Assembly (NCBI GenBank): GCA_025458025.1
Contig: JALOTF010000014.1
Location: 1-63,898, forward strand
Source of the DNA: Beijerinckiaceae bacterium
GTDB taxonomy: Bacteria; Pseudomonadota; Alphaproteobacteria; Rhizobiales; Beijerinckiaceae
Length of the DNA stretch: 63,898 nucleotides
Direction: 5' to 3'
Below are positions 11,122 to 41,600 of the stretch, piece after piece. Each line of letters begins with the position of its first letter. The first letter of the stretch is position 1. The notes beneath the pieces are model-generated. The model made no database searches and had not been told where the DNA came from. It saw only the letters and a program-made list of their open reading frames with translations. The position numbers and the translations under genes are program-made.

Positions 11122-11130
11122 GGTATGCCC

Positions 11131-20157: not shown

Positions 20158-21837
<1,680 letters not shown>

Positions 21838-21838
21838 G

Positions 21839-22377: not shown

Positions 22378-22390
22378 TCGGCCTCCAATT

Positions 22391-22693: not shown

Positions 22694-22709
22694 CGAAGGC
22701 CTCGGTTCG

Positions 22710-23516: not shown

Positions 23517-23703
23517 GTTGGTTCCGGTTTTTCCTGAAAGACCATGCATCTCATGGGCCAACACGATCAGACCCAACGAGGTCGCTACCGAGAATAACGG
23601 GAACCGAGGAAAAACTGGCGGATTTGCCAGCCCGGGGGAAACCTTTCACAACGTTCCTGCGTAGAGAGAAACGACACGCTCCCTGTTCGAAAGCCGGGTT
23701 TCC

Positions 23704-26054: not shown

Positions 26055-27122
26055 TCAGGGGCGCACGAGAATGGTGCCGCGCTCCACGAAGGAGAGCCCG
26101 ACCTCCTCGCCCACGGCGCGCACCGCATGGGCCTCCGGCGCAATGACGAAAAGCCGGCCTGCTGGCGTCTCAAGGTTGTATTCCGCAACGCCACCCATAT
26201 AGGTCGCAGTGGCGATCTTCGCCGCGAGCGTGTTCTCCGTGCCGGCTGCATGAAGCCGCACAGCTTCGGGACGGATGACGAGATCGGCCGAACCGGGCGT
26301 GAGCCCGCGCGCCGGCAGGTTGAACTGCGCACCACCGAGTTTCACATCGGCGCGAGTGCCCGTCACTTTGATCACCTCGGCATTCACATGGTTCGCTTCG
26401 CCCATGAAGGTTGCCACGAAAGTGTTCGCGGGCTCCTCGTAGAGATCGCGCGGGCTGCCGGCCTGCGCGATCTCCGCCGCCTTCATCACCACAATCTTGT
26501 CAGACACGGCGAGCGCCTCGGACTGGTCATGCGTGACATAGACCACGGTGACGCCGAGCCGCTGCTGCAACTCGCGGATTTCCTCGCGCATCGAACGGCG
26601 CAGGCGAGCATCGAGGTTCGACAGCGGCTCATCGAAGAGCAGCACATCCGGTTCGAGCACAAGCGCGCGGGCCACGGCCACACGCTGCTGCTGGCCGCCG
26701 GACATCTCGGATGGCAGGCGGCTGCCATAGCCCTTGAGGCCTACGGTCGTCAGCGCATCCTCGGCCTTGGCATAGGCCTCGGGCTTGCCCATTCCGCCGG
26801 AAATCAGCCCGAAAGCCACGTTTTCCAGCACGGACATGTGTGGAAACAGCGCGTAGGACTGGAACACCATCGAGACATTGCGCTCGCCGGCCGAAAGATC
26901 GGTCACGTCGCGCCCCCCGATATAGAGCTTGCCTTCGGAGACGCGTTCCAGCCCCGCGATCATGCGCAGCAAGGTGGTCTTGCCGCAACCGGACGGGCCA
27001 AGAAGGGTGACGAGCGAGCCCGCCTCGATCACGAGGTCGAGTGGCTTCACGGCGGTCACCGCGCCATATCGCTTGGCGACGCGCGTCAGGCGAACCTCGG
27101 CGGCTTGCTTCTTCGTGGTCAT
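26055..27122 (-). CDS. ABC transporter ATP-binding protein (FbpC/AfuC-like), cassette 1
   Basis: A 355-aa ATPase. Walker A LGPSGCGKTT is near 38-47, the Q-loop lies in VFQSYALFPHM, the signature is LSGGQQQR near 137, Walker B LLFDEPLSNLDARLRR near 158, and the H-loop YVTHDQSEA near 195. The C-terminal third is a TOBE regulatory domain. It powers the importer formed with the overlapping permease gene (four-base ATGA overlap). Sequence is close to the mirrored cassette at 38754-39800. Confidence 0.93.
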   Translation of the reverse strand: MTTKKQAAEVRLTRVAKRYGAVTAVKPLDLVIEAGSLVTLLGPSGCGKTTLLRMIAGLERVSEGKLYIGGRDVTDLSAGERNVSMVFQSYALFPHMSVLENVAFGLISGGMGKPEAYAKAEDALTTVGLKGYGSRLPSEMSGGQQQRVAVARALVLEPDVLLFDEPLSNLDARLRRSMREEIRELQQRLGVTVVYVTHDQSEALAVSDKIVVMKAAEIAQAGSPRDLYEEPANTFVATFMGEANHVNAEVIKVTGTRADVKLGGAQFNLPARGLTPGSADLVIRPEAVRLHAAGTENTLAAKIATATYMGGVAEYNLETPAGRLFVIAPEAHAVRAVGEEVGLSFVERGTILVRP

Positions 27123-29332
27123 GCGGAAACTCCGGCAGGATTGGCGGCAGGGGAATCGGCCTTGCGCCGGCCGAGCTTGCGCTCGCCCACCAGCAGGGTG
27201 ATCAGCCCGATCGCGGCCATCATCAGGACAATGAGAACAGTGGAATAGGCAATCGCGAGGCCGTAATCGCCGTTGATCACGCGGTTGATGATGAAGACCG
27301 TCGCCATCTCATGCTGCGCCGAGACGAGGAAGATCACGGCTGAAACGGTCGTCATGGCGCGCACGAAGGAATAGACCAGCGCGGTGACGATTGCCGGCTT
27401 CATCAGCGGCAGCACCACCAGCCGCAAGGTACGGAAGGTGGAGGCGCGCAAGGTCACCGCCGCCTCGTCGAGGCTCTTGTCGAGCTGGCTCATCGCCGCC
27501 ATGCCCGAACGCACGCCCACCGGCATGTTGCGGAACACGAAGCAGAGGATGAGGATCAGCCCGGTGCCGGTCACTTCCAGCGGCGGGATGTTGTAGGTGA
27601 GGATATAGGCGACGCCGATCACCGTTCCGGGCACGCAGAAGGTGAGCATCAGCGCGAATTCCAGCGCGGTTTTCCCGGCGAATTTCTGGCGGGATAGCAG
27701 CCAGGCCGCGAGCAGGCCCACAGAGGCCGTGAGCGGTGCCGCGATGCCCGCGAGCTGGATCGTCGTGAAGAGCGACGACCATGCACCACCCGACCAGATC
27801 AGGCCATGCGGCCCCCATTCGATCGCGAAGGCACGGCCGAAATGCGAGAGCGTGGGCGTCCAGTCGCGGCCCCAGACCTTCACGAAGCCACCCGCCAGCG
27901 CCAGCGTGTAGACCGTGACGGTCAGGATCGCCCAGGGGATCGCAATACCATAGGCCGTGCGCTTCACCCAATCCGGCAGCGGGCGCGCGAGACCCGGATC
28001 ACCCTTGCCGGTGACGGACACATAGGAGCGCGTGCCGATCACCTTGCGCTGGATGAAGAAGGCAGCGAGCGCGAAGGCGAGCAGAATAAGCGCGAGCGTC
28101 GCGGCGCGGCCGAAATCGGCCTGAGCCCCCACGACCGCGAAGAAGATCTCGGTCGAGAGCACGCCAAACGAGCCCCCGAGCACGATGGGGTTGCCGAAAT
28201 CCGCGAGGCTTTCGACGAAGACCACGAGGAAGGCATTGGCGATGCCCGGCATCATCAGCGGCAGGGTTACGGCGCGGAAGGTGCGGGTGCGATCCGCGCG
28301 CAGCATCTCCGCAGCCTCTTCCATCGATGGCGCGATGCCCTGCACCACGCCGATCAGCACAAGGAAGGCCGTGGGCGTGAAGGAGAAGACCTGCGCCAGC
28401 AGAACGCCGTCAAAGCCGTAGATCCAGCGGCCCAATTGCCAGCCGAAGAGGTTCTCCGCCGCCTGATTCACGAGACCCGAGCGGCCGAAGATCAGGATTA
28501 GCCCGAGGCCGATGACGAAAGGCGGCGTGATGATCGGCAGAACCGTCAGCAGGCGCATGCCCTTCTTGAAGGGGAAGCTCGTGCGCGTCACGATCAACGC
28601 GAAGCAGAGGCCGAGAATGGTCGCGCAGGTCGCAGTCGAGAGCGCCAGCGCCAGCGTGTTCCACGCCACACCGCATTGCGATCCGGAATAGACGCAGGCG
28701 AGCCCCCACACCTTCGGGTGGAAGAAGCGATCGACGAACGCCACCCACAGCGTCTGGTCGGAGGGCGGCTTGAAAGCCTGTCCGAGGATCGTCACCACCG
28801 GCCAGACCGTGAAGAGGATGATGCAGGCCACGAGGAAACCCACCGAGCCGGCGATGAAGCGGTCGCCGCCGAAGCGGCCCTTCAGCGCGAGGCCTTCCGT
28901 GGTGAGGAACAGCAGCGCGAAGAAGCTCAGCGCGCCCCCTGCCCCGATGCCGAATTGCCGCTCGGAGAGTTCACCGAACATGCCCTCCAGACGCGGCGAG
29001 AACCAGCCGCGTGGGCCAATCGTCCAGCCTTGCAGGATGAGCATCGCGAGACCGAACAGGCCGAAACCGAACAGTAGCCGGCCCTTCGCCTCGCGGCTGA
29101 GGCCGGGGCGCAGCGCAAGTGCCAGCGCCGCCCAGGCAATCAGCACCGGCCAGAACCAGAACCGGCCATGGAACAGAGCCTGCATCAGTGCGGAGGTGGA
29201 ATCCGCATCGGTGACGAAGGGCGCGAAAAGCGCGGGAATGCTGTGGCCGTTCTGCAGCCAATGCCAGGGCAGAACCACCAGCCCGAGGCTGAGCAGCGAC
29301 CACCAGAGCAGAACCGGATCTTTGCGGGTCAT
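27119..29332 (-). CDS. ABC transporter permease with two fused inner-membrane domains (FbpB/AfuB-like), cassette 1
   Basis: About 737 aa from the ATG at 29332; a TTG at 29374 would add 14 residues. The N-terminal block of some 190 residues is very hydrophobic. Two binding-protein-dependent permease domains follow, each with an EAA-type loop: EEAAEMLRADRTRTFRAVTLPLMMPG near 340 and DEAAVTLRASTFRTLRLVVLPLMKP near 635. Fused permeases of this sort serve FbpABC and AfuABC systems. It is separated from the binding-protein gene by a strong hairpin. Confidence 0.92.
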   Translation of the reverse strand: MTRKDPVLLWWSLLSLGLVVLPWHWLQNGHSIPALFAPFVTDADSTSALMQALFHGRFWFWPVLIAWAALALALRPGLSREAKGRLLFGFGLFGLAMLILQGWTIGPRGWFSPRLEGMFGELSERQFGIGAGGALSFFALLFLTTEGLALKGRFGGDRFIAGSVGFLVACIILFTVWPVVTILGQAFKPPSDQTLWVAFVDRFFHPKVWGLACVYSGSQCGVAWNTLALALSTATCATILGLCFALIVTRTSFPFKKGMRLLTVLPIITPPFVIGLGLILIFGRSGLVNQAAENLFGWQLGRWIYGFDGVLLAQVFSFTPTAFLVLIGVVQGIAPSMEEAAEMLRADRTRTFRAVTLPLMMPGIANAFLVVFVESLADFGNPIVLGGSFGVLSTEIFFAVVGAQADFGRAATLALILLAFALAAFFIQRKVIGTRSYVSVTGKGDPGLARPLPDWVKRTAYGIAIPWAILTVTVYTLALAGGFVKVWGRDWTPTLSHFGRAFAIEWGPHGLIWSGGAWSSLFTTIQLAGIAAPLTASVGLLAAWLLSRQKFAGKTALEFALMLTFCVPGTVIGVAYILTYNIPPLEVTGTGLILILCFVFRNMPVGVRSGMAAMSQLDKSLDEAAVTLRASTFRTLRLVVLPLMKPAIVTALVYSFVRAMTTVSAVIFLVSAQHEMATVFIINRVINGDYGLAIAYSTVLIVLMMAAIGLITLLVGERKLGRRKADSPAANPAGVSA

Positions 29333-29445
29333 GGCGCAGAAAACCTTGATGAAAGGGAGATCCGGCCGAAACAAAAGGCCGTGTCATCGCAAGAGGATAT
29401 GCGGCAATAGCCGGTGAGCGGATATGCACCCGCATTCGGGAGAGC

Positions 29446-29475
29446 CCGGGCCGAAGCGCATAGGCGCCGGCCCGG
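29446..29475 (-). promoter_or_regulatory. Strong hairpin between binding-protein and permease genes, cassette 1
   Basis: CCGGGCCG (29446-29453) pairs perfectly with CGGCCCGG (29468-29475). Inside, GCGC pairs with GCGC around a four-base loop after a two-base bulge, giving about 12 pairs. There is no T tract, so a 3' stabiliser or processing stem is more likely than a terminator. Position matches the hairpins of both TRAP cassettes. Confidence 0.6.
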
Positions 29476-29512
29476 ACCCTACCTTGATCCTCGACGTGGA
29501 GAGTTCTTCCGC

Positions 29513-30544
29513 TCAGCGCGGAAGCGAGCCGATCTCGGCATCCCACTTCGCGAGAAGCCGGCGACGCTCGGCGGCGGCGCCATATTTCACGAAGTTGTAT
29601 TCCACGAGCTTGATCTTGCTCAGATCCGGCGCGCCCGGCGGAAGCGGGGTCGCCTTGTTCGACGGCGTCTGCAACTGGCCGCCACGGGTGTAACCGAGCT
29701 TCTGCGCCTCGGGTCCGAGCGCCCAATCGTAGAATTTGCGCGCATTCGCGACGTTGCGCGTGCCCTTCATGATGGACATCGAGCCGATCTCGTAGCCCGT
29801 GCCTTCGCAAGGCGTGGCGTAGGAGACAGGGAAGCCCGCATTGTTCTCGGTCACGGCGTCATGGACGAAGGAGAGCGACACGGCCGTTTCGCCGCGCGCC
29901 ACCGCCTTGATCGGGCCGGTGCCGGAGCGGGCGTAGGCCGAGATGTTGGGGTGCAGCTGCTTCATGTAGTCAAAAGCCTGCTGCTCGCCCATGAGCTGCA
30001 CGAGGGTCGCGATGATCACGTAGGCCGTGCCCGAGGAGTTCGGGTTCGCGACCTGAATCTCGCCCTTGAAAGCCGGCTTGACGATGTCGGCCCAGCATTT
30101 CGGGGCCTCGAGGTTCTTCTTCTTCAGCAGTTCGGTGTTGAAGCCGAAGCCGATTGCGCCCGAATAGATGCCGACCGAACGGCCCTTCGAAGCTTCATAC
30201 TGGCGCAGCGCCCAGGGCTGGAGCTGGTCGTTCAGCGGAGATTTGTAGGCCTCGGAGAGCCCCTCTTCCGCCGCCGCGAGATGCGGGTCGCCCGTGCCAC
30301 CGAACCAGACATCCACCTTCGGGTTGTCCTTCTCGGCGCGGATCTGCGCAAAGGCCTCGCCGGAGCCCTTCTGCGTCATGTTGACGGTGATACCCGTGTC
30401 TTTCTGGAAATTCGTGGCGATGGCCTGGCACCATTCTACCTGCACCGAGCAGAGCAGGTTGATCTGGCCCTGCGCCTGCGCGCCGTTCGTCGCGGCAAAA
30501 GCCGTCGCGGACGCGAGAAGCGCCGCCTTCAGGATCTTCGTCAT
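29513..30544 (-). CDS. ABC transporter solute-binding protein (AfuA/FbpA superfamily), cassette 1
   Basis: A 343-aa protein starting at the ATG at 30544 after GGGAGGAAGAG; the upstream extension has no start signal. The signal peptide is MTKILKAALLASATAFAATNGAQAQ. Family landmarks are LLCSVQVEWCQAIA, DVWFGGTGDPHLAAAE, NPNSSGTAYVIIATLVQLMGE and TPCEGTGYEIGSMS. It lacks the adjacent tyrosine pair used by FbpA to bind Fe3+, so iron is unlikely. AfuA members bind sugar phosphates. The paralogue at 35429-36469 is highly similar over the whole length. Confidence 0.88.
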   Translation of the reverse strand: MTKILKAALLASATAFAATNGAQAQGQINLLCSVQVEWCQAIATNFQKDTGITVNMTQKGSGEAFAQIRAEKDNPKVDVWFGGTGDPHLAAAEEGLSEAYKSPLNDQLQPWALRQYEASKGRSVGIYSGAIGFGFNTELLKKKNLEAPKCWADIVKPAFKGEIQVANPNSSGTAYVIIATLVQLMGEQQAFDYMKQLHPNISAYARSGTGPIKAVARGETAVSLSFVHDAVTENNAGFPVSYATPCEGTGYEIGSMSIMKGTRNVANARKFYDWALGPEAQKLGYTRGGQLQTPSNKATPLPPGAPDLSKIKLVEYNFVKYGAAAERRRLLAKWDAEIGSLPR

Positions 30545-30618
30545 CTCTTCCTCCCAAGAGCCCACCGCGCCCGCTGATCCGCCCTTTGATCGGCGGAACA
30601 TCCGTGCACTGTGGTTTT

Positions 30619-30650
30619 ACTACATAAGCACGTAGTTTTTATACATGTCA
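30619..30650 (-). promoter_or_regulatory. Candidate promoter with overlapping palindromic operator, cassette 1
   Basis: On the minus strand, TTGACA (30650-30645) is followed after about 19 bases by TATGTA. Between and over the -10 lies ACTAC-N8-GTAGT (30619-30636), a perfect 5+5 inverted repeat with the size expected for a GntR- or LacI-type dimer site. The stretch is clearly AT-richer than its surroundings. It would drive the binding-protein gene (start 30544). The cognate regulator is not in the window. Confidence 0.45.
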
Positions 30651-30722
30651 AGATGCTTTGCCGGCGATCCGACGGCTGGTGGCCGGGCGCGGAGCGGCGT
30701 GCCGCCGAGTTGCGATGTGGTT

Positions 30723-32573
30723 TCAGCCCTCGCCGGAAAAATCGTTCGCGAAATGCTGGAGCTGCTTGCGCATCAGCGTGGTGGCCGCCGCATCATCCAG
30801 CTCACCGCCGAGCCAGAGCTGGAAGGCCACGCCGAACACCGAGCGACCGCCCACGAAGCCCATCACGCGCGGCTGTTTCCCCGCCTTCTTCAGATCCGGG
30901 CCGGATTGCGCATTGCGAGCGATGACGATGAGGCCCCGGCAGAGCGGATCTTCCTTCGCGATCACGGCATCGATGGCGTTCCACGACATCGCGTCATGCT
31001 GCAACTCAACAAGCCAGTAATCGGGCTTGAGACCCTCTTCATAGAGCCGTGCGAGCATCATCGCCGTGGTTTCGCCTTCCGGCGGCAAGGCCTCGATCAG
31101 CACTTCACGACCAAGGGCCTGTGCGGCGGCGGAGACCTGCTTGATCTCCGGCAGATGCTTCGCGAAGGGCGTTCGTGCATCCGAGCGGCCATTGGCGATG
31201 AGCTTCGCGACCTGCCGCGCCGGCCATTCCGTGAGGCGGATGCGCTCGCCATGCGGCACCTGCCGCGCGATCCAGAAATCATGGTCCTCGGCCCGGAAGA
31301 GCGCCTCGCGCCCCAGCGTTCCATCGAGGAACATGCCGACCCCGAGGCCCTTGCGCGCGCCGAATTCGTCCGCCGCCTCCGCCGCAGCCTTCACCGCGAG
31401 AGCCTTGAAATAGGCAATCTTCCCGGCATCCGCCCCCTGCCCTTTTCCGAATTGCTCGAAATCATGGAGGCCATGATCAATCGAGAGGATTGCGAGCTTC
31501 GGCGGCACGGGCCGGCGGTTTGTGGCGTGGTGAAGGTGGTTCAGCACCGGATCATGCCGCAGGGCGTGATGACTCGAACCCTTCTCCATGAAGTGCTTCA
31601 GCTCCAGGGCGCTGGGATATTCCGGCGCGCAGAGCAGGCGCGAAACCGCAATCGCGCCGCAGGCATTGGCATAGGCGCAGCATTGATCGATGGGCTCATC
31701 GCGCAGCCAGCCCGAGAGGAAGCCGGCCATGAAGGCATCGCCCGCGCCCAGCACGTTATAGACCTCGACCGGGAAGCCCGGCCCGCGAATGCCCTCATCC
31801 AGCGTGGCGGGAATCGCCTTCGGGAAAGCGACGCAGCCCTGCGCGCCACGCTTCGCAACGATCAGCGCCTTGGGCGCGAGCTTCCGAATGGCCTTCAGCG
31901 CGGCAATCGTATCCATGGAGCCGCCGGCAATGTGGAGTTCCTCCTCCGTGCCGACGATGAGATCGCAATCCGGCAGGATTCCCGCGAGATGCGCGCTGAC
32001 CGTATCGGAGGCGATGAACCGGCTTTCGCCCGCGCCATGCCCCGCGAGGCCCCAGAGATTCGGGCGATAATCGATGTCGAAAATCACCTTCGCGCCGGTT
32101 TCCTGCGCAAGGCGGATCGCCTTCTTCTGCGCTGCATCGCTGTTCGCCTTGGCGAAATGCGTGCCGGTGACGAGCACGGCGCGGGTGCGGGCGATGAGTT
32201 CGCGCGTCACATCGCCCTCATCCAGAGCGGCATCAGCGCAATCCGTGCGGTAGAAAATCAGCGGGAAGGAATTCTCGTCGCGCACGCCGAGCAGCACCAA
32301 AGCCGTGAGCCGCTGCGGATCGGTCGCAAGGCCATCGACGCACACGCCCTCGCGCACCAGCTGCTCACGGATAAAGCGGCCCATCGCCTCGTCACCCACG
32401 CGGGAGATCAACGCAGATTTCAGGCCGAGACGCGCCGCCCCCACCGCGATGTTGGTGGGGCAGCCGCCCACCGCCTTCACGAAACTCGCCATGTCTTCCA
32501 GACGGCCGCCGATCTGCTGGCCGTAGAGATCCACCGACGAGCGGCCGATGGTGACGAGATCGAGATCTTTCAT
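30723..32573 (-). CDS. iolC: Fused 5-dehydro-2-deoxygluconokinase (IolC) and DUF2090 aldolase-like protein
   Basis: 616 aa from the ATG at 32573. Residues 1-310 form a PfkB-family sugar kinase: DLVTIGRSSVDLYG at the start, GGCPTNIAVGAARLG near 36 and the catalytic NVLGAGDAFMAGFLSGW near 275. Residues 330-616 form a DUF2090 domain (LAILSIDHGLHDFEQF near 352, GRSVFGVAF near the end), thought to be the phosphate-aldolase step. The fusion is typical of proteobacterial myo-inositol catabolism. IolE, IolD, IolB and IolA are not in the window. Confidence 0.9.
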   Translation of the reverse strand: MKDLDLVTIGRSSVDLYGQQIGGRLEDMASFVKAVGGCPTNIAVGAARLGLKSALISRVGDEAMGRFIREQLVREGVCVDGLATDPQRLTALVLLGVRDENSFPLIFYRTDCADAALDEGDVTRELIARTRAVLVTGTHFAKANSDAAQKKAIRLAQETGAKVIFDIDYRPNLWGLAGHGAGESRFIASDTVSAHLAGILPDCDLIVGTEEELHIAGGSMDTIAALKAIRKLAPKALIVAKRGAQGCVAFPKAIPATLDEGIRGPGFPVEVYNVLGAGDAFMAGFLSGWLRDEPIDQCCAYANACGAIAVSRLLCAPEYPSALELKHFMEKGSSHHALRHDPVLNHLHHATNRRPVPPKLAILSIDHGLHDFEQFGKGQGADAGKIAYFKALAVKAAAEAADEFGARKGLGVGMFLDGTLGREALFRAEDHDFWIARQVPHGERIRLTEWPARQVAKLIANGRSDARTPFAKHLPEIKQVSAAAQALGREVLIEALPPEGETTAMMLARLYEEGLKPDYWLVELQHDAMSWNAIDAVIAKEDPLCRGLIVIARNAQSGPDLKKAGKQPRVMGFVGGRSVFGVAFQLWLGGELDDAAATTLMRKQLQHFANDFSGEG

Positions 32574-32574
32574 C

Positions 32575-33387
32575 TTAGAGCCCCGGTTCGAGGGGATCAG
32601 CGCCGATCCCGACAATGGTTTGATCAAAATCGATGTTCGAGCCGGTCATCAGGCCGGATTCATCGCTCGCGAGATAGAGGCAGGCACGCGCCACCTCCTG
32701 CGGATCAATGAGCCGACCGAAGGGCCGATCCTTCACCGCGTTTTCGAGCCAGCCATCCTCGGCACCATGGTAGACGCGCATCACACGCTCCTCGCCGGGC
32801 GTGTGCATCCAGCCGATATTGAGGCCGTTGACGCGAATCCGGTGCTTCACGAGGGCATGGGCGAGGTTGCGCGTGAGCGTCGCCAGCGCACCCTTCGACG
32901 AGGAATAGGCCGAGAGGAACGGCTGCCCGCCATGCGCGGACATGGACTGGATGTTGATGATCGAACCGGCGATCTTCTCGCGCGCCATGATGGTCACGGC
33001 ATCCTGCGTGAGGAAAAACGGCGCGCGGACATTCACCGCGAAAAGCTCGTCGAATCGCTCCTGCGTGGTGTCGAAAATCGTGCCGCGATCCGTCAGCCCC
33101 GCCGCATTCACCAGAACGTCCACCCGACCAAACTGGTGATCCGCCGCCGCAATGACCGAGCGGACATCCTCCATCTTAGACAGGTCTGCCTGCGCGAAAA
33201 TCGAGGGGGTGCCTTGCCGAGTGAGTTCGTCGCGGATGCGTGCGCCGCGCGCCGCATTCCGGCCCGTGAGGCAAAGTCCTGCCGCGCCCGCCGCGGCAAA
33301 GGCACGGGCGATTGCTTCGCCCAGACCTTGCGTGGCACCGGTCACCACCGCGACCTTTCCCGTGAGGCGACCCACGCCTGTGCTCAT
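32575..33387 (-). CDS. Short-chain dehydrogenase/reductase of the inositol-like cluster
   Basis: A 270-aa SDR from the ATG at 33387. It has TGATQGLGEAIA near residues 14-25, NAAG near 93, and the catalytic YSSSK near 160. The C-terminal DFDQTIVGIGADP is the usual end of an SDR with an unusual D-F-D-Q motif in place of VDGG. It probably oxidises or reduces a cyclitol or sugar in the pathway. It lies one base upstream of the iolC start and is divergent from iolG, 128 bases away. Confidence 0.82.
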   Translation of the reverse strand: MSTGVGRLTGKVAVVTGATQGLGEAIARAFAAAGAAGLCLTGRNAARGARIRDELTRQGTPSIFAQADLSKMEDVRSVIAAADHQFGRVDVLVNAAGLTDRGTIFDTTQERFDELFAVNVRAPFFLTQDAVTIMAREKIAGSIINIQSMSAHGGQPFLSAYSSSKGALATLTRNLAHALVKHRIRVNGLNIGWMHTPGEERVMRVYHGAEDGWLENAVKDRPFGRLIDPQEVARACLYLASDESGLMTGSNIDFDQTIVGIGADPLEPGL

Positions 33388-33515
33388 TCTGCTTCCCCGC
33401 TGCCGCCAGTTTGCCGGCTCAAATTCTTCTCGCAACAGCATTGCCTGAGTCTGTTTGCAATTCTAGTCTCGCCACGAGTTGGAAAGAGCCGGTTGACCGG
33501 CGGGGGAAGATTGTC

Positions 33516-34508
33516 GTGATCGGATTGGGAGTCATCGGCGCGGGGCGCATCGGGCGCATCCATGCGGGGAATGTCGTGGCGCATGCCGGCGCAAAACTGG
33601 TTGCAGTGAGTGATGCGCTGCCCGGTGCGGCAGAGAGCCTTGCCGCTGAACTCGGCACGAAGGCCACGACGCGCGAGGCGATGCTCGCAGATTCCTCGAT
33701 TTCCGGCGTACTCATCTGTTCACCCACCGATACGCACGCGGATTTCATCGAAGAGGCCGTGAAGGCCGGCAAGGCCGTGTTCTGCGAGAAGCCGGTGGAC
33801 CTCTCGTCGGATCGCATCCGCGCCTGCCTGAAGACGGTGGCCGCCAGCGGCAAACCGCTGATGATCGGCTTCAACCGCCGGTTCGACCCCAATTTCGCGG
33901 AAGCGAAAAAGCGCCTTGTCGCCGGGGCGATTGGCAAGATCGAGATGGTGACGATCCTCTCTCGCGATCCCGGCCCGCCCCCGGCGGAGTATGTGAAGCG
34001 CTCGGGCGGGCTTTTCCGCGACATGATGATCCACGATCTCGACATGGCGCGCTTCCTCCTCGGCGAAGACCCGGTGGAGGTGCATGCGGTCGGCTCCTGC
34101 CTCGTTGATCCCGCCATCGGGCAGGCCGGAGATGTCGATACCGCCGCCGTGCTGCTGAAGACCGCCTCGGGCAAGATCGCGCAGATCTCGAATTCGCGCC
34201 GCGCGAGCTATGGCTATGACCAGCGCTTCGAGGTGCATGGCGAAAAGGGCATGGTGCGCGCGCAGAACGTGCCGATGACCACCGTGGAAACGGCCAATGC
34301 CGAGGGGTTCCGGGCCGATCCCGTGCTGCCCTTCTTCCTGGAGCGTTATGCCGCGGCCTATCGCGCGGAACTTGCTGCATTCCTCGATTGCATGACGAAC
34401 GGCATGGAACCCTCGCCCTCGGGCGTGGATGGCCTCAAGGCGCAGGTGCTCGCGGATGCCGCGACCGAATCCGCGCAAACGGGCAAGCCTGTCCACCCCG
34501 TCTATTGA
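33516..34508 (+). CDS. iolG: Inositol 2-dehydrogenase-like (Gfo/Idh/MocA family)
   Basis: About 330 aa with a GTG start at 33516, eight bases after GGGGGAAG; the frame upstream lacks a start signal. The Rossmann motif GVIGAGRIGRIHAGN is at the very N-terminus, the catalytic lysine sits in CEKPVDL near 90, and MIGFNRRFDPNF and the active-site RDMMIHDLDMARFL follow near 170. The pattern is typical for myo-/scyllo-inositol 2-dehydrogenases. It heads the plus-strand arm and overlaps the phosphatase gene (TGATG). Confidence 0.85.
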   Translation: MIGLGVIGAGRIGRIHAGNVVAHAGAKLVAVSDALPGAAESLAAELGTKATTREAMLADSSISGVLICSPTDTHADFIEEAVKAGKAVFCEKPVDLSSDRIRACLKTVAASGKPLMIGFNRRFDPNFAEAKKRLVAGAIGKIEMVTILSRDPGPPPAEYVKRSGGLFRDMMIHDLDMARFLLGEDPVEVHAVGSCLVDPAIGQAGDVDTAAVLLKTASGKIAQISNSRRASYGYDQRFEVHGEKGMVRAQNVPMTTVETANAEGFRADPVLPFFLERYAAAYRAELAAFLDCMTNGMEPSPSGVDGLKAQVLADAATESAQTGKPVHPVY

Positions 34509-35314
34509 TGAGTATCCAGATGACCGACAACGCGTTGCTCGCCGCCCGTTTCCATGCCGTGCATGGCATGGCGCTGAAACTGGGCGAAACGGCCCTCTCC
34601 TATTTCGGCCGCACGGATGCGCTCGAAATCTCGATGAAGGGTTTTCAGGACTGGCTCACCGTTGCCGATGGCACGGTAGAGAAGGAATTCCGCGCGATGA
34701 TCGCGGAGGCCTTCCCCGGTGATGCCGTGATGGGCGAAGAACAGGGCGGCGGCGCGTCGGATCATCTCTGGATCATCGACCCGATCGACGGCACCTCGAA
34801 TTTCGCGCGCGGGGATCGCCAATGGTGCATCTCCATCGGCTTCGTGCTGAAAGGCGTGCCGGAAATCGGGCTCATCTATGCGCCAGCCATCGGCGAGATG
34901 TGGCTCGCGCGACGCGGCGCTGGCGCGACGCTCAATGGCCAGCCGATCCGCGCAGCGACCACCACCGATCTGCGCCGCTCGACCATCGAATGCGGCTGGT
35001 CCACCCGCCGTCCGGTCGAGGATTATCTGAGCGTCGTCGCGCACCTTTACGGGGCCGGTTCCAGCGTCAAGCGTTCGGCATCGGGCGCGCTGGGAGTTGC
35101 TCATGTGGCAAACGGGCGCACGGACGCCTACATCGAAGCCCATATCAATTCATGGGATGTCGCGGCCGGGCTGGTCATCGCGGTCGAGGCTGGGTGCCGC
35201 ACTAATGCCTTTTGCAGCGGAAACTGGATCGCCGAGGGCAATCCCATCCTCGTGGCCACGCCGGGCGTGGCGGAAGAGGTTTCCACCCTTTCGGGCATTG
35301 CGCTGGCCCCTTGA
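34508..35314 (+). CDS. Inositol monophosphatase family phosphatase
   Basis: A 268-aa protein with all metal-site motifs of the Mg2+-dependent phosphatases: GEEQGG near 76, WIIDPIDGTSNFARG near 88-102, and HINSWDVAAG near 215. It is expected to dephosphorylate a small polyol or sugar phosphate in the cytoplasm. Direct overlap with iolG and position inside an AfuABC-type import cluster suggest it acts on the imported compound. Histidinol-phosphatase-like activity is the main alternative. Confidence 0.88.
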   Translation: MSIQMTDNALLAARFHAVHGMALKLGETALSYFGRTDALEISMKGFQDWLTVADGTVEKEFRAMIAEAFPGDAVMGEEQGGGASDHLWIIDPIDGTSNFARGDRQWCISIGFVLKGVPEIGLIYAPAIGEMWLARRGAGATLNGQPIRAATTTDLRRSTIECGWSTRRPVEDYLSVVAHLYGAGSSVKRSASGALGVAHVANGRTDAYIEAHINSWDVAAGLVIAVEAGCRTNAFCSGNWIAEGNPILVATPGVAEEVSTLSGIALAP

Positions 35315-35327
35315 GGCTAAACCGCAA

Positions 35328-35356
35328 TTGACGGGGCGGGAAAGACCTGCATTTTA
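35328..35356 (+). promoter_or_regulatory. Candidate sigma-70 promoter of the second binding-protein gene
   Basis: TTGACG (35328-35333) and ATTTTA (35351-35356) are 17 bases apart, about 70 bases before the binding-protein start at 35429. The -10 is a moderate match. It would give the binding protein its own promoter in addition to read-through from iolG. Confidence 0.4.
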
Positions 35357-35428
35357 GTCGGCAAATGTCACACAGATGACGCGGGATGCGGAGAAAAAGC
35401 CGATCTCGAGATTTGGGAGGAGACCACT

Positions 35429-36469
35429 ATGGCCACACGCCGTTCTTTCGCGCTTGCCCTTTTTGCCGCCACGGCGATGGGCGGGCTTGCCCCGGCCCCG
35501 GCGGCTGCGCAGGGCGAACTCGTGCTTTACTGCTCCGTGCAGGAGGAATGGTGCCGCCCGATGGCGCAGGCTTTCGAGCGCGCCACCGGCATCAAGGTCG
35601 CGATGACGCGCAAGTCGTCTGGCGAAACCTATGCGCAGATCAAGGCGGAAGCCGCCAACCCGCGCGGCGATGTGTGGTGGGGTGGCACGGGTGACCCGCA
35701 TCTGCAGGCGGCCGAAGAGAATCTCACCGAGGCGTACAAGAGCGCGAAGCTCACCGAACTCCTGCCATGGGCGGTGAAGCAGGCAGAGCAATCCGGCTTC
35801 AAGACCGTGGGCATCTATGCTGGTGCGCTCGGCTTCTCCTTCAACAAGGAGCAGATCGCCCGCAAAAAGCTGCCGGAGCCCAAGTGCTGGGCCGACCTCA
35901 CCAAGGCGGAATACAAGGATGAGGTGCAGGTCGCCGACCCGAACTCTTCCGGCACTGCCTACACCAAGGTCGCGACGCTGATCCAGCTCTTCGGCGAGGA
36001 CAAGGCCTTCGAGATGATGAAGGCCATGCACAAGAACATCAACCAGTACACCAAGTCCGGTGCCGCCCCGGCCCGCGCCGCCGCAACCGGTGAGAGCCTG
36101 ATCGGCATCACCTTCCTGCATGACGCCGTGACGCAAGCCGTGAGCGGCGCGCCGGTGCAGATCGTGGCACCTTGCGAAGGCACGGGCTACGAGATCGGCT
36201 CGATGTCGATCATCAAGGGCGCCAAGAACATGGACAACGCCAAGAAGTTCTATGACTGGGCGCTGACCCCGGAAGCCCAGAAGCTTGCGCTCGCCGCGAA
36301 GAGCTATCAGGTGCCGTCCAACAAGGCTTCTGAAGTGCCGAAGGAATCGCCGAACCTCGCGGAAATCAAGCTGATCGACTACAATTTCGCGAAATATGGC
36401 TCCTCCGCCGAGCGCACGCGCATCCTGCAGAAGTGGGACGCAGAAGTGCGCAACGCACCGCGCCGCTGA
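35429..36469 (+). CDS. ABC transporter solute-binding protein (AfuA/FbpA superfamily), cassette 2
   Basis: A 346-aa exported protein preceded by GGGAGGAGACC. The signal peptide runs to AAAQG near residue 28. Landmarks match cassette 1: YCSVQEEWCRPMAQAFE, DVWWGGTGDPHLQAAEENLTEAYKS, PKCWADL, DPNSSGTAYTKVATLIQLFGE and PCEGTGYEIGSMSIIKG. The Fe3+-binding adjacent tyrosines of FbpA are absent. I infer a phosphorylated polyol or sugar ligand related, but not identical, to that of cassette 1. Confidence 0.88.
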   Translation: MATRRSFALALFAATAMGGLAPAPAAAQGELVLYCSVQEEWCRPMAQAFERATGIKVAMTRKSSGETYAQIKAEAANPRGDVWWGGTGDPHLQAAEENLTEAYKSAKLTELLPWAVKQAEQSGFKTVGIYAGALGFSFNKEQIARKKLPEPKCWADLTKAEYKDEVQVADPNSSGTAYTKVATLIQLFGEDKAFEMMKAMHKNINQYTKSGAAPARAAATGESLIGITFLHDAVTQAVSGAPVQIVAPCEGTGYEIGSMSIIKGAKNMDNAKKFYDWALTPEAQKLALAAKSYQVPSNKASEVPKESPNLAEIKLIDYNFAKYGSSAERTRILQKWDAEVRNAPRR

Positions 36470-36480
36470 GGACAACTCAC

Positions 36481-36582
36481 GTGTGATTTCCGCTCGATGT
36501 GGCAGCTTCGAGCGGGATTCCACGATGGTCGCGGAATGAGGGATTCGCCTCCGCTGGCTCGCGTCAGTGCCGAGAATCACAC
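36481..36582 (+). other. Candidate structured RNA element between binding-protein and permease genes, cassette 2
   Basis: GTGTGATT (36481-36488) is complementary to AATCACAC (36575-36582). Inside lie CCGCTCGA (36490-36497) pairing with TCGAGCGG (36508-36515), ATTCC (36517-36521) with GGAAT (36533-36537), and CTCG (36558-36561) with CGAG (36571-36574). The helices nest into a four-way junction. It occupies the gap where other cassettes have single hairpins. No known RNA family is recognised. Confidence 0.4.
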
Positions 36583-36609
36583 CTGAATGAACGGCTCGGG
36601 GGGAGCAAC

Positions 36610-38742
36610 ATGCAACGCAGGCAGGCGGATCGGGGGATCGTGGATCTCGGCGCAGCCGGGGTCGCATTGGTCGCGTTTCTGCTGCTCCCCTTCGCCTTTG
36701 TCGGCGACATGCGCTCTGGCCTCGGCTGGCTGATGGATGGTCGCTGGGCCTTTCTGTTGCCGGTTCTTGCAAGCCTCGTTGTCGCGTTTCTGGCCCGGCA
36801 GGGCGTGACAACCGCCGGGACGCGCCTTACGCTCGCGGGCGGTGGCCTCTTCTGGATGATCCTCTACGGCTTCCACGGGAAGCTGATCGACGATCGTCCC
36901 CTGCTGGCGCATGGTCTTGGCGCAGGGCTGATCGCCTCCGCGTTGGTGCTTCAGGGCACGCGTGCGCTGGCGAGCCTCGGCGCCTTCAAGGCGGATCGCT
37001 GGGTGGCAACCACCACGGTCACGATCCTCGTGCTGGTGTTGACCTTCGTATTCTTCCCCGTGGCGAAGGTGCTGGGCAGCGCCTTCCTCGACAAGGCGGG
37101 GAACCTTGATCTTACCTTGTTCTGGGCCCGCCTGACTGCACCGGATGTCTGGGGCATGGCCTGCTACTACTCGAGCGCCTCTTGTGGTGTGGTGCCGAAT
37201 ACCATCCTTCTGGGCGTGTTGGCGGGCCTGCTTTCAACGTTTCTCGGTCTCGCTTTCGCGCTTCTGGCGCAGCGCGGGGGACTCAAGAATACGCGCGTTT
37301 TCGATGCGCTTTCGGTGCTACCGATCATCACCCCGCCTTTCGTGATTGCGCTGGCATTGGTGGTGTTGTTTGGACGGACGGGCATTGTCACGACGTTTCT
37401 CGACAACTGGTTCAACATCCCGCGCTCGCGCTGGATTTACGGCCTGCCCGGCGTGCTGATCGCGCAGGTGCTGTCACAGACGCCACTGTCCTACATGATC
37501 CTGCGCGGGGCCTTGCAGGGCATCTCGCCCTCGCTGGAGGAAGCCGCGCAGACACTCCGCGCTTCCCGCTGGACGACCTTCCGCACCGTGACCTGGCCGC
37601 TGCTGCGCCCCGCGATTGCTGCGTCAATCCTGCTCGGATTTGTCGAAAGCCTCGCGGATTTCGGCAACCCGCTGGTGCTTGGTGGTTCGTTCGAGGTGCT
37701 CTCGACCAAGATCTTCTTCGCGGTGGCCGGCGCGCAGCATGATCCCGGACGCGCGGCAATCCTCGCGGTGATCCTGCTGGCGCTCACCCTCACCGCTTTC
37801 TGGATGCAGCTCGTCTGGCTCGGAAAGAAATCTTACGTCACCGTGACCGGTAAGGGCGATTCCGGCCAGCCGCTGCCTTTGCCGAAGGGCGTGCGCATCG
37901 CCACACTTTCCGTTGTGGTTCCGTGGGTTATGCTCACACTTCTCATTTATGGAATCATCGTTGTCGGCGGCTTCGTGCAGGATATCGGCCGTGGCGCGAT
38001 GAAGCCGACCTTCGAGCATTTCCAGACCGGCTTTGCCATCGAATGGACCCAGCATGGCTTGTTCCTCGCCGGCTCCGCCTGGGATAGCTTCATCACCACC
38101 GTGCAGGTCTCGGCGATTGCCGCGCCGCTGACCACGATTATCGGCATCCTAACGGCCTACGTATTGGTGCGGCATGATTTCGTGGGCCGGCGCACCTTCG
38201 AATTCATCACCATGCTGGCCTTCGCCATTCCCGGCACGGTGATCGGCGTGGCCTATATCGTGGCCTTCAACGTGGCCCCGCTGGAACTCACCGGCACGGG
38301 GTTGATCCTCATCATCTGCTTTGTCTTCCGCAACATGCCCGTGGGCGTGCGCGCCGGCATCGCGGCGCTGAGCCAGATCGACAAGTCGCTGGATGAAGCC
38401 TCGACCACGCTCGGCGCTTCCACCGGCACCACTGTGCGCCGTGTGACCCTGCCGCTGCTGAAGCCCGCGATCATCGCGACTTTGGTTTTCTCGTTCGTGC
38501 ACGCCATGACATCGGTCAGCGCGATCGTGTTTCTCGTCACCGCGAAATACAACATGGCAACGGCCTATATCGTGAACCGGGTGGATGCCGGCGAATACCC
38601 GCTGGCGATTGCCTATTCCTCCCTTCTCATCATTTTCATGCTGGTCGTGGTGCTGGCGATCCAGATCGGCGTCGGCGAGCGCAGGATTGGTCGCCGGCAG
38701 GTTTCGGGCAATGCGCCCGCGCCCGTCGCGGTTGGCCGCTAG
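36610..38742 (+). CDS. ABC transporter permease with two fused inner-membrane domains (FbpB/AfuB-like), cassette 2
   Basis: 710 aa from the ATG at 36610 after GGGGGGAGCAAC; the frame continues upstream without a start signal. After a hydrophobic N-terminal block come two permease domains with EAA loops: EEAAQTLRASRWTTFRTVTWPLLRP near 317 and DEASTTLGASTGTTVRRVTLPLLKP near 595. Architecture and length match cassette 1. It is 11 bases from the ATPase gene. Confidence 0.92.
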   Translation: MQRRQADRGIVDLGAAGVALVAFLLLPFAFVGDMRSGLGWLMDGRWAFLLPVLASLVVAFLARQGVTTAGTRLTLAGGGLFWMILYGFHGKLIDDRPLLAHGLGAGLIASALVLQGTRALASLGAFKADRWVATTTVTILVLVLTFVFFPVAKVLGSAFLDKAGNLDLTLFWARLTAPDVWGMACYYSSASCGVVPNTILLGVLAGLLSTFLGLAFALLAQRGGLKNTRVFDALSVLPIITPPFVIALALVVLFGRTGIVTTFLDNWFNIPRSRWIYGLPGVLIAQVLSQTPLSYMILRGALQGISPSLEEAAQTLRASRWTTFRTVTWPLLRPAIAASILLGFVESLADFGNPLVLGGSFEVLSTKIFFAVAGAQHDPGRAAILAVILLALTLTAFWMQLVWLGKKSYVTVTGKGDSGQPLPLPKGVRIATLSVVVPWVMLTLLIYGIIVVGGFVQDIGRGAMKPTFEHFQTGFAIEWTQHGLFLAGSAWDSFITTVQVSAIAAPLTTIIGILTAYVLVRHDFVGRRTFEFITMLAFAIPGTVIGVAYIVAFNVAPLELTGTGLILIICFVFRNMPVGVRAGIAALSQIDKSLDEASTTLGASTGTTVRRVTLPLLKPAIIATLVFSFVHAMTSVSAIVFLVTAKYNMATAYIVNRVDAGEYPLAIAYSSLLIIFMLVVVLAIQIGVGERRIGRRQVSGNAPAPVAVGR

Positions 38743-38753
38743 GAGTATTGTGC

Positions 38754-39800
38754 ATGGCGAAAGCCGCGAGTGTCGAGTTCATCAATGTTTTCAAGCGCTA
38801 CGGCAACGTGACTGCCGTGCGCGACGTCTCCTTCAAGGTGGAAGCGGGCCAGCTTGTGACGCTGCTTGGCCCCTCGGGCTGCGGCAAGACCACGACTCTG
38901 CGCCTCGTTGCGGGCCTCGAACTGGCCTCCGAAGGCACGATCAAAATCGGCAACGAGAACGTGACGCAGCTTGGCGCCGCCGAGCGCGATGTCTCGATGG
39001 TTTTCCAGTCCTACGCGCTGTTTCCGCACATGAATGTGCTGGATAATGTGATGTATGGCCCGCTCGTCTCCGGCGCCTCGAAGAAGGATGCCGAGGCGAT
39101 GGCCATCGAGAAGCTCGGCCTGGTCGGCCTCAAGGGCTTCGAGAAGCGCCTGCCCTCCGAACTCTCCGGTGGCCAGCAGCAGCGCGTCGCGGTCGCGCGC
39201 GCAATTGTGCTCGAACCCTCGGTGCTGCTCTTCGATGAGCCGCTCTCGAACCTCGATGCCAAGCTGCGCCGCAAGGTGCGCGATGATATCCGCGACCTCC
39301 AGCAGCGGCTGGGGCTCACGGTGCTCTATGTCACCCACGATCAGGAGGAGGCTTTGGCCGTCTCCGACAAGGTCATCGTGATGGACAATGCCGTGATTGC
39401 GCAGGAGGGCACGCCCGCGGACCTCTACGAGCGCCCGAAAACGCGCTTCCTCGCGGATTTCATCGGCGAGGCGAACCTGATCGACGGCTCCTTCAGCCAG
39501 CAGGCCGGCAATGTGATCTTCACGGCCAGCGGCACGACCTTGGCGCTCGGCGCGGTTGCGGTGCCGGAGAACGCGAAAACGCTCGCCTTCCGGCCGGATC
39601 GAGCGGGACTGGCGCTGGATGCGGCGAGCCCACTGGTCATCCGCCGGCAGGCCTATATCGGCCCCTCGCGCGAATATGTGGTGGATGCGCCCTGGGGCGA
39701 ATTGCTGGTCGTGCGGCCCGTGCGCGAGGCCATTCTGCCGAATGGCGCGAATGTGCGCCTCGAGATCGAACCGGATGCCGCGATGGTCCTTCCGGGCTGA
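38754..39800 (+). CDS. ABC transporter ATP-binding protein (FbpC/AfuC-like), cassette 2
   Basis: A 348-aa ATPase, start at 38754 after AGGAG. Walker A LGPSGCGKTTT is near 37-47, VFQSYALFPHM carries the Q-loop, the signature LSGGQQQRVA is near 136, Walker B LLFDEPLSNLDAKLRR near 158 and YVTHDQEEA near 194. A TOBE-like domain closes the protein. It is the partner of the preceding permease and close in sequence to the ATPase of cassette 1. Confidence 0.93.
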   Translation: MAKAASVEFINVFKRYGNVTAVRDVSFKVEAGQLVTLLGPSGCGKTTTLRLVAGLELASEGTIKIGNENVTQLGAAERDVSMVFQSYALFPHMNVLDNVMYGPLVSGASKKDAEAMAIEKLGLVGLKGFEKRLPSELSGGQQQRVAVARAIVLEPSVLLFDEPLSNLDAKLRRKVRDDIRDLQQRLGLTVLYVTHDQEEALAVSDKVIVMDNAVIAQEGTPADLYERPKTRFLADFIGEANLIDGSFSQQAGNVIFTASGTTLALGAVAVPENAKTLAFRPDRAGLALDAASPLVIRRQAYIGPSREYVVDAPWGELLVVRPVREAILPNGANVRLEIEPDAAMVLPG

Positions 39801-39821
39801 ATGGCCAAGCGAGGAGCTTGC

Positions 39822-40670
39822 ATGAGACGGTTTCTCGCTGCCCTCGCGCTGTTTTTCGCCACCGCCCTGCCCGTAGCGGCGCAATCGCCCGCCGCCGAGC
39901 CCATCGAGATTTTCGACGCACATCTCCATTACAACTGGGAGCCGACGCCGTTCTTCACGCTGACCGAGGTGCAGGCGCTGTTCAAAAAGCACCGCGTCAC
40001 CGGCATTCTCGCGACGAGCCGCCCGAATGACGGCACGCATGCACTCGTGGGCTCACCGCAGGACGGCCTGTGGGTCGTGCCGTTCATCCGGCCCTATCGC
40101 GTGCGTCCAGATGTGCAGAGCTGGTTCTCGAACCCGGTGATTTTCGAACTGATCGAGCAGGAATTCAAACGCGGCTATTACATCGGAATCGGCGAGTTTC
40201 ACCTCTCGGGTCGCGCGGCGGCGACGGAAACCGTGCGTAAAACCGTGAATTTCGCGGTGGAGCATGATCTTTTCCTGCATGCTCATGCGGATGAGGAGGC
40301 GGTGGAGATCCTCTTCCAGCACAACCCCAAGGCCAAGATCATCTGGGCGCATACCGGCTTCGGCCTCGCAACCGAGCGTGTGGAAGCCTTGCTAAAAAAG
40401 CACCCGATGCTCTGGGGCGAACTCTCCTACCGCTCGGGAATCACGAGCGGAAACGGAGTCCTTTCAAGCGAATGGCGCAATCTCTTCACGCGCTACCCTG
40501 ACCGGTTCATGGTGGGTTCGGATACGTGGATCAACGAGCGCTGGGCGAGCTACGGCGAGATCATGGCACAGTATCGCGGCTGGCTCGGCCAGTTGCCGCC
40601 GGCGGTCGCCGCACGCATCGCGCATGGCAACGCGAGGGCGCTGTTTGAACCGCGCATGCAGCGGCGCTGA
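39822..40670 (+). CDS. Exported amidohydrolase-family protein
   Basis: 282 aa from the ATG at 39822, after GAGGAG; an upstream ATG at 39801 is less well placed. The signal peptide is [21 protein letters not shown]. The TIM-barrel metal residues of the amidohydrolase-2 (COG2159-like) type are visible: FDAHLHY near 34, GIGEFHLSG near 120, LHAHADE near 150, WAHTGFG near 174 and GSDTW near 228. It is expected in the periplasm, where it may process the ligand of the linked importer. The reaction (hydrolase or decarboxylase) is unknown. Confidence 0.75.
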
Positions 40671-41596: not shown

Positions 41597-41600
41597 TCGC

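What the first reader, a model, noticed from the sequence alone, without database searches (positions are those of the whole stretch)
26055..40670. Mirror-image ABC/inositol cluster: candidate uptake and breakdown system for a phosphorylated polyol or sugar
Seen: two complete AfuABC/FbpABC-type importers, clearly paralogous, run outward from a divergent centre. The minus arm is SDR, IolC-DUF2090, binding protein, permease, ATPase; the plus arm is IolG-like, inositol-monophosphatase family, binding protein, permease, ATPase, exported amidohydrolase. Known: AfuA-type proteins bind sugar phosphates; IMPase proteins dephosphorylate polyol phosphates; IolG and IolC act in inositol catabolism. Inference: an inositol phosphate or similar ester is imported intact, dephosphorylated inside, and fed into an IolG-IolC route. 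I know of no described system with this layout.
Basis: partly seen in the sequence, partly recalled or inferred. Interest (0 to 1): 0.72.

Follow-up and report, generated by a model that had tools for sequence, protein, structure and literature searches.

The report
Inositol-phosphate import and breakdown gene cluster
This bacterium carries a gene cluster that probably pulls in inositol with its phosphate still attached, cuts the phosphate off inside the cell and burns the inositol; the parts are known ones, but this combination was not found in the papers searched.

Summary
The cluster is real. Its plus arm (IolG, IMPase-family phosphatase, AfuABC-type importer) is a conserved unit: the same order recurs in relatives, often beside iolC-iolD-iolE, and other arrangements of the same genes occur in a Rhodoferax MAG and a distant class member. 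Of 17 same-genus genomes, 10 have both the IMPase orthologue and iolC, 7 neither. The genome has one iolC (here), iolB/D/E on another contig, and no recognised IbpA- or IolT-type free-inositol importer. Both binding proteins keep AfuA's key sugar-phosphate residues. Most likely: a phosphorylated inositol is imported, dephosphorylated by the IMPase and fed to the iol pathway. The ligand is inferred; hexose 6-phosphates are not excluded, since the pocket is nearly that of G6P binders. Corrections: the two importers are not mirror copies (50-56% identical, different clades); the minus-arm importer is accessory; the amidohydrolase is not part of the unit. Exceptions exist: some AfuABC+IMPase genomes lack iolC, and one iol-linked importer has no IMPase nearby. 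Intact import of inositol phosphate is known from Thermotoga (recalled), so this is a new variant of a known kind.

The parts
33516..34508 (+). iolG, inositol 2-dehydrogenase
   Evidence: TIGR04380 446 bits, cut-off 355; first gene of the plus arm in 12 loci including the window
34508..35314 (+). IMPase-family phosphatase, predicted inositol-phosphate phosphatase; ATG overlaps the iolG stop by one base
   Evidence: PF00459 175.5 bits; GEE, DPIDGT and WD motifs invariant in the 15 aligned sequences; overlap read from the sequence; under every NCBIfam equivalog cut-off listed
35429..36469 (+). AfuA-type binding protein SBP2 (plus arm)
   Evidence: best PDB matches 8x1a E 6.8e-96 and AfuA 4r72 E 4.3e-95; AF2 model pLDDT 85.5; Foldseek best 8x1a, titled G6P binding protein VcA0625, then AfuA, 47% identity
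36499..38742 (+). AfuB-type fused permease (plus arm)
   Evidence: two BPD_transp_1 stretches
38748..39800 (+). AfuC-type ATPase (plus arm)
   Evidence: ABC_tran and TOBE_2
30723..32627 (-). iolC-DUF2090, 5-dehydro-2-deoxygluconokinase with fused DUF2090 domain; the only iolC over cut-off in the genome
   Evidence: TIGR04382 380.9 bits, cut-off 300; NF047869 560.5 bits, below its cut-off 600; single copy over cut-off
32575..33441 (-). SDR oxidoreductase (true start probably internal); conserved beside iolG
   Evidence: NF004847 398.7 bits, cut-off 240; present in all 12 loci with the conserved plus arm, absent from L102 and L124
33442..33515 (.). divergent promoter region; no GGAA-N6-TTCC IolR box there
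   Evidence: 26 window matches with up to 1 mismatch, 24.1 expected; none in this interval; alignment of 6 loci
29513..30601 (-). AfuA-type binding protein SBP1 (minus arm, accessory)
   Evidence: AfuA 4r72 E 8.2e-95; clade with proteins of G104, G274 and G137 that have no iol neighbours in the stretches seen
27119..29374 (-). AfuB-type fused permease (minus arm, accessory)
   Evidence: two BPD_transp_1 stretches
26055..27122 (-). AfuC-type ATPase (minus arm, accessory)
   Evidence: ABC_tran and TOBE_2
39801..40670 (+). Amidohydro_2 protein, adjacent but not part of the conserved unit
   Evidence: PF04909 43.6 bits; no NCBIfam match at 1e-15; no listed match in the related loci mapped

Best explanation
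The plus arm with the divergent iolC is an uptake and breakdown unit for a phosphorylated inositol, most simply an inositol monophosphate. The AfuA-type protein SBP2 binds the ester in the periplasm and the AfuB/AfuC permease-ATPase brings it in intact. The IMPase-family enzyme, whose start overlaps the iolG stop, removes the phosphate. IolG oxidises the freed inositol to inosose, and IolE, IolD and IolB (encoded on another contig) and the IolC-DUF2090 protein finish the standard pathway. The organism gains carbon and phosphate at once. The minus-arm importer is an accessory AfuABC system of another clade, seen at the locus in two (window, G003) of the nine same-genus loci whose flank could be seen, and probably takes a related phospho-sugar or phospho-polyol. 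Shown: gene identities, conserved linkage, co-occurrence, pocket residues, no recognised IbpA- or IolT-type importer. Inferred: ligand, phosphatase substrate, flux.
For: (1) The order IolG-IMPase-SBP-permease-ATPase recurs in 12 loci: window, L097 (contig ends in the SBP gene), L098-L101, L103-L105, L107, L108, L116 (contig ends in the ATPase gene); iolC-iolD-iolE are adjacent in 6 of them (L101, L103-L105, L107, L108). (2) Other arrangements: Rhodoferax MAG L124 (iolC-D-E-B then IMPase, AfuABC convergent), G146/L216 (AfuABC, IMPase, SDR, iolG, iolC, iolD, iolE), G149/L217 (IMPase-AfuABC with iolD and iolG). In the SBP tree the iol+IMPase label needs 7 changes (6 forced by starred branches; two are due to the minus-arm SBPs), 14.7 when shuffled. 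(3) Same genus: IMPase orthologue (best E 2.3e-94 or better; the rest 1e-27 or weaker than 1e-32) and iolC both in 10 of 17 genomes, neither in 7 (Fisher 5e-5). All 61: 16 of 16 genomes with an IMPase hit at E 1e-60 or better (a threshold set after seeing the list; G026 and G051 are only 44-45% identical) have iolC, against 10 of 45 others (p 2.6e-8; outside the genus 6 of 6 against 10 of 38, p 0.001). (4) 13 of the 13 searched genomes of AfuABC+IMPase loci have iolC, against 11 of 20 chosen loci with an IMPase hit but no AfuABC (p 0.004). (5) The genome's Peripla_BP_4 hits are XylF and a LacI-type regulator; of four proteins hit by PF00083 the three named are a metabolite/H+ symporter and two Bcr/CflA pumps. 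(6) AfuA's ring residues H205, D206, E229 and phosphate residues S37, T150 are kept in both SBPs (residues from PMC4546632; alignments).
Against: The pocket is almost that of G6P/F6P binders: of 19 positions named in PMC4546632 and PMC8427247, SBP2 keeps 16 and SBP1 17, and AfuA tells G6P from glucose 1-phosphate, whose phosphate, like that of inositol phosphates, sits directly on the ring. No pocket position looked at separates iol-linked from unlinked importers. In the class sample AfuA occurs without iolC in 9 of 17 genomes, and two of the eight AfuABC+IMPase genomes there (G149, G179) lack iolC. G220 has AfuABC with iolE, iolD, iolG and SDR but no IMPase in the stretch and no iolC. G035 (L109) has IMPase-IolG-SDR without an importer, and G051 (L111) has the IMPase without an AfuA-type SBP. 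No IolR box was found at the promoter. Genomes are not independent, the controls are not matched, and CUT1-type importers were not examined.
Confidence: 0.58

Rival explanations
1. The importers are ordinary hexose-phosphate (G6P/F6P) AfuABC systems and the IMPase dephosphorylates sugar phosphates; the iol genes are neighbours because all serve polyol and sugar scavenging.
For: Closest solved structures are G6P-binding proteins: AfuA and 8x1a, titled G6P binding protein VcA0625; pocket nearly unchanged; AfuABC+IMPase pairs without iol genes in the stretch are common; AfuA occurs in 9 class genomes without iolC.
Against: It does not explain the repeated linkage with iolG/C/D/E/B, the 10-of-10 against 0-of-7 co-occurrence in the genus, or the lack of a recognised free-inositol importer. 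Imported hexose phosphates need no phosphatase to enter glycolysis (general knowledge).
Confidence: 0.2
2. The substrate is an inositol phosphodiester or another substituted inositol phosphate (glycerophosphoinositol, lipid head groups, phytate fragments), with a further enzyme acting before the IMPase.
For: Same linkage evidence. L223 carries an extra oxidoreductase and an alpha/beta hydrolase next to an iol-linked AfuABC.
Against: No phosphodiesterase or phytase is among the cluster genes scanned; the rest of the genome was not searched for one. The described AfuA and P5PA pockets enclose a monophosphate.
Confidence: 0.12
3. The plus-arm importer carries free inositol and the IMPase is there for another reason, such as clearing inositol phosphate formed in the cell.
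For: No IbpA- or IolT-type importer was recognised in the genome; G220 has AfuABC with iol genes and no IMPase in the stretch.
Against: Phosphate-binding residues S37 and T150 are kept in both SBPs, and AfuA showed no interaction with unphosphorylated glucose (figure legend).
Confidence: 0.07

Closest known systems
AfuABC, sugar-phosphate importer (Actinobacillus, Citrobacter; PMC4546632)
   Same: Binding protein, permease and ATPase; ring residues H205/D206/E229 and phosphate residues S37/T150 kept; SBP2 model 47% identical to the solved proteins
   Different: Here paired with an IMPase and iol genes; pocket-edge changes at T11, L61 and Q64 (both SBPs), G36 (SBP2 only) and I186; ligand untested
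Thermotoga InoEFGK inositol(-phosphate) transporter with inositol catabolic genes (Rodionova et al. 2013, recalled; InoEFGK listed as the inositol regulon's transporter in PMC3750489; inoEFG named inositol-phosphate transport in PMC12008989)
   Same: Imports phosphorylated inositol for catabolism (recalled); belongs with inositol catabolic genes
   Different: A different ABC type and a different downstream route (recalled); no homology test was made here
Alphaproteobacterial iol module with IbpA-IatA-IatP (Caulobacter, Sinorhizobium; PMC2597717)
   Same: IolG/IdhA, IolC, IolD, IolE, IolB pathway
   Different: Imports free inositol through another ABC importer under IolR with GGAA-N6-TTCC boxes; neither the importer type nor the box was found here. 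That paper already suggests that a different, HlyB-family ABC protein might carry inositol phosphates
P5PA, pyridoxal phosphate binder (PMC8427247)
   Same: AfuA-like fold
   Different: P5PA has Ala where AfuA has D206 and E229; both window SBPs keep D and E

Membership tests
AfuA sugar-phosphate binding proteins | H205, D206, E229 ring residues | tested here: met
   Both SBPs keep them (residues)
AfuA sugar-phosphate binding proteins | nanomolar binding of a sugar phosphate | not testable with these tools
   no ligand assay or docking available
FbpA ferric-iron binding proteins | nearest to iron-binding proteins in sequence and structure | tested here: not met
   SBP2: AfuA-type E about 1e-95, other proteins named as iron binders E 6e-13 or weaker; Foldseek 47% against about 20% identity
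P5PA | Ala at the AfuA D206 and E229 positions | tested here: not met
   Asp and Glu in both SBPs (P5PA)
IMPase family (PF00459) | family match with GEE, DPIDGT and WD motifs (motifs recalled) | tested here: met
   175.5 bits; motifs invariant in the 15 aligned sequences
IMPase family (PF00459) | activity on inositol monophosphate | not testable with these tools
   best NCBIfam models are HisN (137 bits, cut-off 275) and SuhB (130 bits, cut-off 332)
iol inositol catabolic pathway | iolG, iolC, iolD, iolE, iolB in the genome | tested here: met
   iolG and iolC here; iolE and iolD over cut-off on C142; iolB over cut-off on C142; iolA not looked for
IolR/IbpA-type iol module | GGAA-N6-TTCC box at the iol promoter | tested here: not met
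   none at 33442-33515; window total 26 against 24.1 expected
IolR/IbpA-type iol module | CUT2 (Peripla_BP_4) inositol binding protein in the genome | tested here: not met
   only XylF and a LacI-type regulator; no homologue at E 1e-30 of the CUT2 protein from G034's iol locus in any of the 17 same-genus genomes
Thermotoga InoEFGK | homology to InoE | not tested
   no InoE sequence was at hand

The most novel reading that the evidence does not exclude
AfuABC plus a dedicated IMPase is a widespread, repeatedly assembled proteobacterial route for taking up inositol monophosphates intact, in part standing in for the free-inositol importer; many genes now labelled iron(III) transporters would be inositol-phosphate importers.
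Probability: 0.4. Interest if true: 0.68.

Novelty: new variant of a known kind. Interest (0 to 1): 0.5.

Why it matters
Inositol phosphates are reported to make up 2-60% of the organic phosphorus in animal waste, and phytate is the main phosphorus store of plants (PMC9430895, abstract in listing and passage). Known bacterial iol systems, Thermotoga apart, take up free inositol (general knowledge). A conserved importer-phosphatase-iol unit would give bacteria the carbon and the phosphate together and deny both to neighbours, and would give a specific function to proteins that are annotated as iron(III) transporters (an example of that labelling: PMC9611204). The prediction can be tested with one binding protein and one enzyme.

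Tried and rejected
Iron uptake was rejected on sequence and structure. PhnS/PhnU/PhnT-type aminoethylphosphonate uptake: the NCBIfam models score below their cut-offs. A local mirror duplication was rejected by the SBP tree. An IolR box at the promoter was not found. A pocket residue that would mark iol-linked importers was looked for and not found. IMPase tree: AfuA-linked IMPases are clustered (12 label changes against 22.4 shuffled, 0 of 500 shuffles as low) but not one clade; the careful tree did not finish and the quick one was used. Importer displacement: the CUT2 binding protein of G034's iol locus is in 2 of 16 iol genomes with the IMPase orthologue and 6 of 10 without (two-sided p 0.026); suggestive only, since that protein's ligand is unproven and genomes such as G029, G041 and G046 may use another importer. 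Class sample: AfuA with IMPase nearby, 6 of 8 have iolC; AfuA without, 2 of 9 (two-sided p 0.057). In that count G214, with a 26% IMPase-like hit near one of its four AfuA copies, was put among those without, and contig ends cut the stretches of G104 and G270. A plasmid search gave only partial matches (no record covers 80% of the query). The first gene map used wrong-strand IolD/IolE queries; it was redone and one search is not relied on for those two genes. Of the 15 AfuABC+IMPase loci among the 80, 14 were given to (L127 was not) and 13 searched (L145 not held); the 20 controls are a choice from L117-L150, and L149 and the loci from L152 on were not given. A VIA-align comparison did not run.

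Papers. Seen as found passages: PMC8427247, PMC2597717, PMC9430895, PMC12482443, PMC9611204, PMC11065229, PMC3750489, PMC12008989; PMC4546632 as abstract and passages; other papers only as search listings. Rodionova 2013 is recalled and was not held. The statement that no paper was found joining AfuA or an importer-linked IMPase to inositol catabolism rests on searches of one open-access library, of which only the papers named here were opened.
Full report
What is there. The plus arm runs iolG (33516-34508), IMPase family (ATG at 34508, overlapping the iolG stop), binding protein SBP2, permease and ATPase to 39800. The minus arm runs SDR, iolC-DUF2090, binding protein SBP1, permease and ATPase to 26055. 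IolG and the IolC kinase domain pass their NCBIfam cut-offs. The IMPase matches PF00459 but reaches none of the HisN, SuhB or CysQ cut-offs, so its substrate is not given by its family.

Genome context. The genome (3.29 Mb, 153 contigs, 97% complete) has one iolC over cut-off, the one here. iolE and iolD lie on contig C142 with iolB beside them. The pathway is therefore complete as far as looked at (iolA was not). No free-inositol importer was recognised: the Peripla_BP_4 hits are XylF and a LacI-type regulator, and of the four proteins hit by PF00083 the three that were named are a metabolite/H+ symporter and two Bcr/CflA pumps. CUT1 importers were not examined.

Conserved unit. Mapping window proteins onto fetched loci shows IolG-IMPase-SBP-permease-ATPase in the same order in 12 loci, the window included (L097 is cut by its contig end inside the SBP gene, L116 inside the ATPase gene). 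In six of these (L101, L103, L104, L105, L107, L108) iolC, iolD and iolE stand next to it. L102 has IolG-IMPase beside iolC-D-E with the permease and ATPase on the far side; L109 has IMPase-IolG-SDR without an importer; L111 has the IMPase without an AfuA-type SBP. Elsewhere, the Rhodoferax MAG locus L124 has iolG, iolC, iolD, iolE, iolB and then the IMPase, with AfuABC convergent. G146 (L216) has AfuABC, IMPase, SDR, iolG, iolC, iolD and iolE together, and G149 (L217) has IMPase-AfuABC with iolD and iolG. AfuABC+IMPase pairs without iol genes in the stretch are also common: Microvirga, Mesorhizobium, Rhodobacteraceae, Thalassospira and others.

Co-occurrence. In the same genus, the IMPase orthologue and iolC are both present in 10 of 17 genomes and both absent in 7 (p 5e-5). 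In all 61 relatives, 16 of 16 genomes with an IMPase hit at E 1e-60 or better have iolC, against 10 of 45 without (p 2.6e-8; outside the genus 6 of 6 against 10 of 38, p 0.001); the threshold was set after seeing the list. For loci, 13 of 13 searched AfuABC+IMPase genomes have iolC (one of them, G072, just under the family's bit cut-off) against 11 of 20 chosen controls with an IMPase hit but no AfuABC (p 0.004). In a class-wide draw of 190 genomes, AfuA (E 1e-70) occurs in 17, iolC (E 1e-80) in 17 and both in 8 (p 1e-5). There the rule is not absolute: 6 of 8 genomes with AfuABC+IMPase have iolC (G149 and G179 do not), against 2 of 9 with AfuA and no IMPase nearby (p 0.057). None of these tests is corrected for phylogeny.

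Binding proteins. Both SBPs are nearest to AfuA and 8x1a by sequence. The SBP2 model (pLDDT 85.5) is nearest to 8x1a, titled G6P binding protein VcA0625, and AfuA, at 47% identity; iron-binding proteins lie at about 20%. PMC4546632 (passages) gives H205, D206 and E229 as ring residues and S37 and T150 as phosphate residues; all are kept in both SBPs. Of 19 pocket positions named in PMC4546632 and PMC8427247, SBP2 keeps 16 and SBP1 17. T11 becomes Q in both, I186 becomes A or T, and G36 becomes S in SBP2; at the pocket edge L61 becomes G and Q64 becomes H in both. This supports a phosphorylated ring ligand but cannot tell inositol phosphate from hexose phosphate, and the same changes occur in importers not linked to iol.

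The two arms. SBP1 and SBP2 are 56% identical. In a tree of 54 binding proteins SBP2 groups with iol-linked proteins, while SBP1 groups with proteins of G104, G274 and G137 (support 99/96) that have neither iol genes nor an IMPase in the stretches seen. Within the genus the minus-arm importer stands beside iolC in the window and in G003 only, of nine loci whose flank could be seen; G010's contig ends there. So the mirror image is the meeting of two AfuABC lineages, and the minus arm is accessory.

Importer replacement. A CUT2 binding protein from the iol locus of G034 is found at E 1e-30 in 8 of 61 genomes and in none of the 17 of this genus. Among iol-positive genomes it is in 2 of 16 with the IMPase orthologue and 6 of 10 without (p 0.026). 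This fits AfuABC standing in for the free-inositol importer, but weakly, and that protein's ligand is unproven.

Mechanism and rivals. The best reading is uptake of a phosphorylated inositol, dephosphorylation inside, and the iol pathway. The main rival is hexose-phosphate uptake with loose association; it fits the pocket but not the repeated linkage to iol genes. Against my reading also stand G220 (L223), with AfuABC, iolE, iolD, iolG and SDR but no IMPase in the stretch and no iolC, and AfuA's discrimination between G6P and glucose 1-phosphate.

Prior knowledge. Import of inositol phosphate by InoEFGK in Thermotoga is recalled (the 2013 paper is not held; InoEFGK is listed for the inositol regulon in PMC3750489), and inoEFG is used as an annotation for inositol-phosphate transport (PMC12008989). 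PMC2597717 suggests that a HlyB-family ABC protein of Caulobacter might carry inositol phosphates. PMC9611204 lists a myo-inositol 1-phosphate transporter and AfuA/FbpA 'iron(III)' proteins as separate items in Rhizobium etli. No paper found joins AfuABC or an importer-linked IMPase to inositol catabolism. I therefore class it as a new variant of a known kind.

Noticed in passing
L100 4074-5078 (-), with L211 and L229: SBP1-type importers in G003, G104 and G274 carry a second, tandem binding protein; the one in L100 has lost AfuA pocket residues (H205 to F, S37 to G, Y103 to S, Q269 to H), suggesting a changed ligand.
   Followed up: partly
L223 (G220) 3574-15159: iolE, iolD, iolG, SDR and AfuABC with an extra Gfo/Idh/MocA oxidoreductase, a GntR regulator and an alpha/beta hydrolase, but no iolC at E 1e-80 in the genome: a possible variant inositol route.
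   Followed up: partly
window 24121-25881 (-): A 586-aa open frame with no Pfam or NCBIfam match at 0.001 and a low codon score for its length; it may not be a gene.
   Followed up: no
window 1373-12669 (+): TRAP transporter parts with mannitol dehydrogenase-type, UxuA and altronate/galactarate dehydratase genes: apparently a hexuronate utilisation region.
   Followed up: no
window 20158-23576 (-): Urease alpha subunit and UreD genes.
   Followed up: no
window 40739-43022 (+): NadC and SelO follow the cluster and stay next to it in L098, L099 and L100.
   Followed up: no
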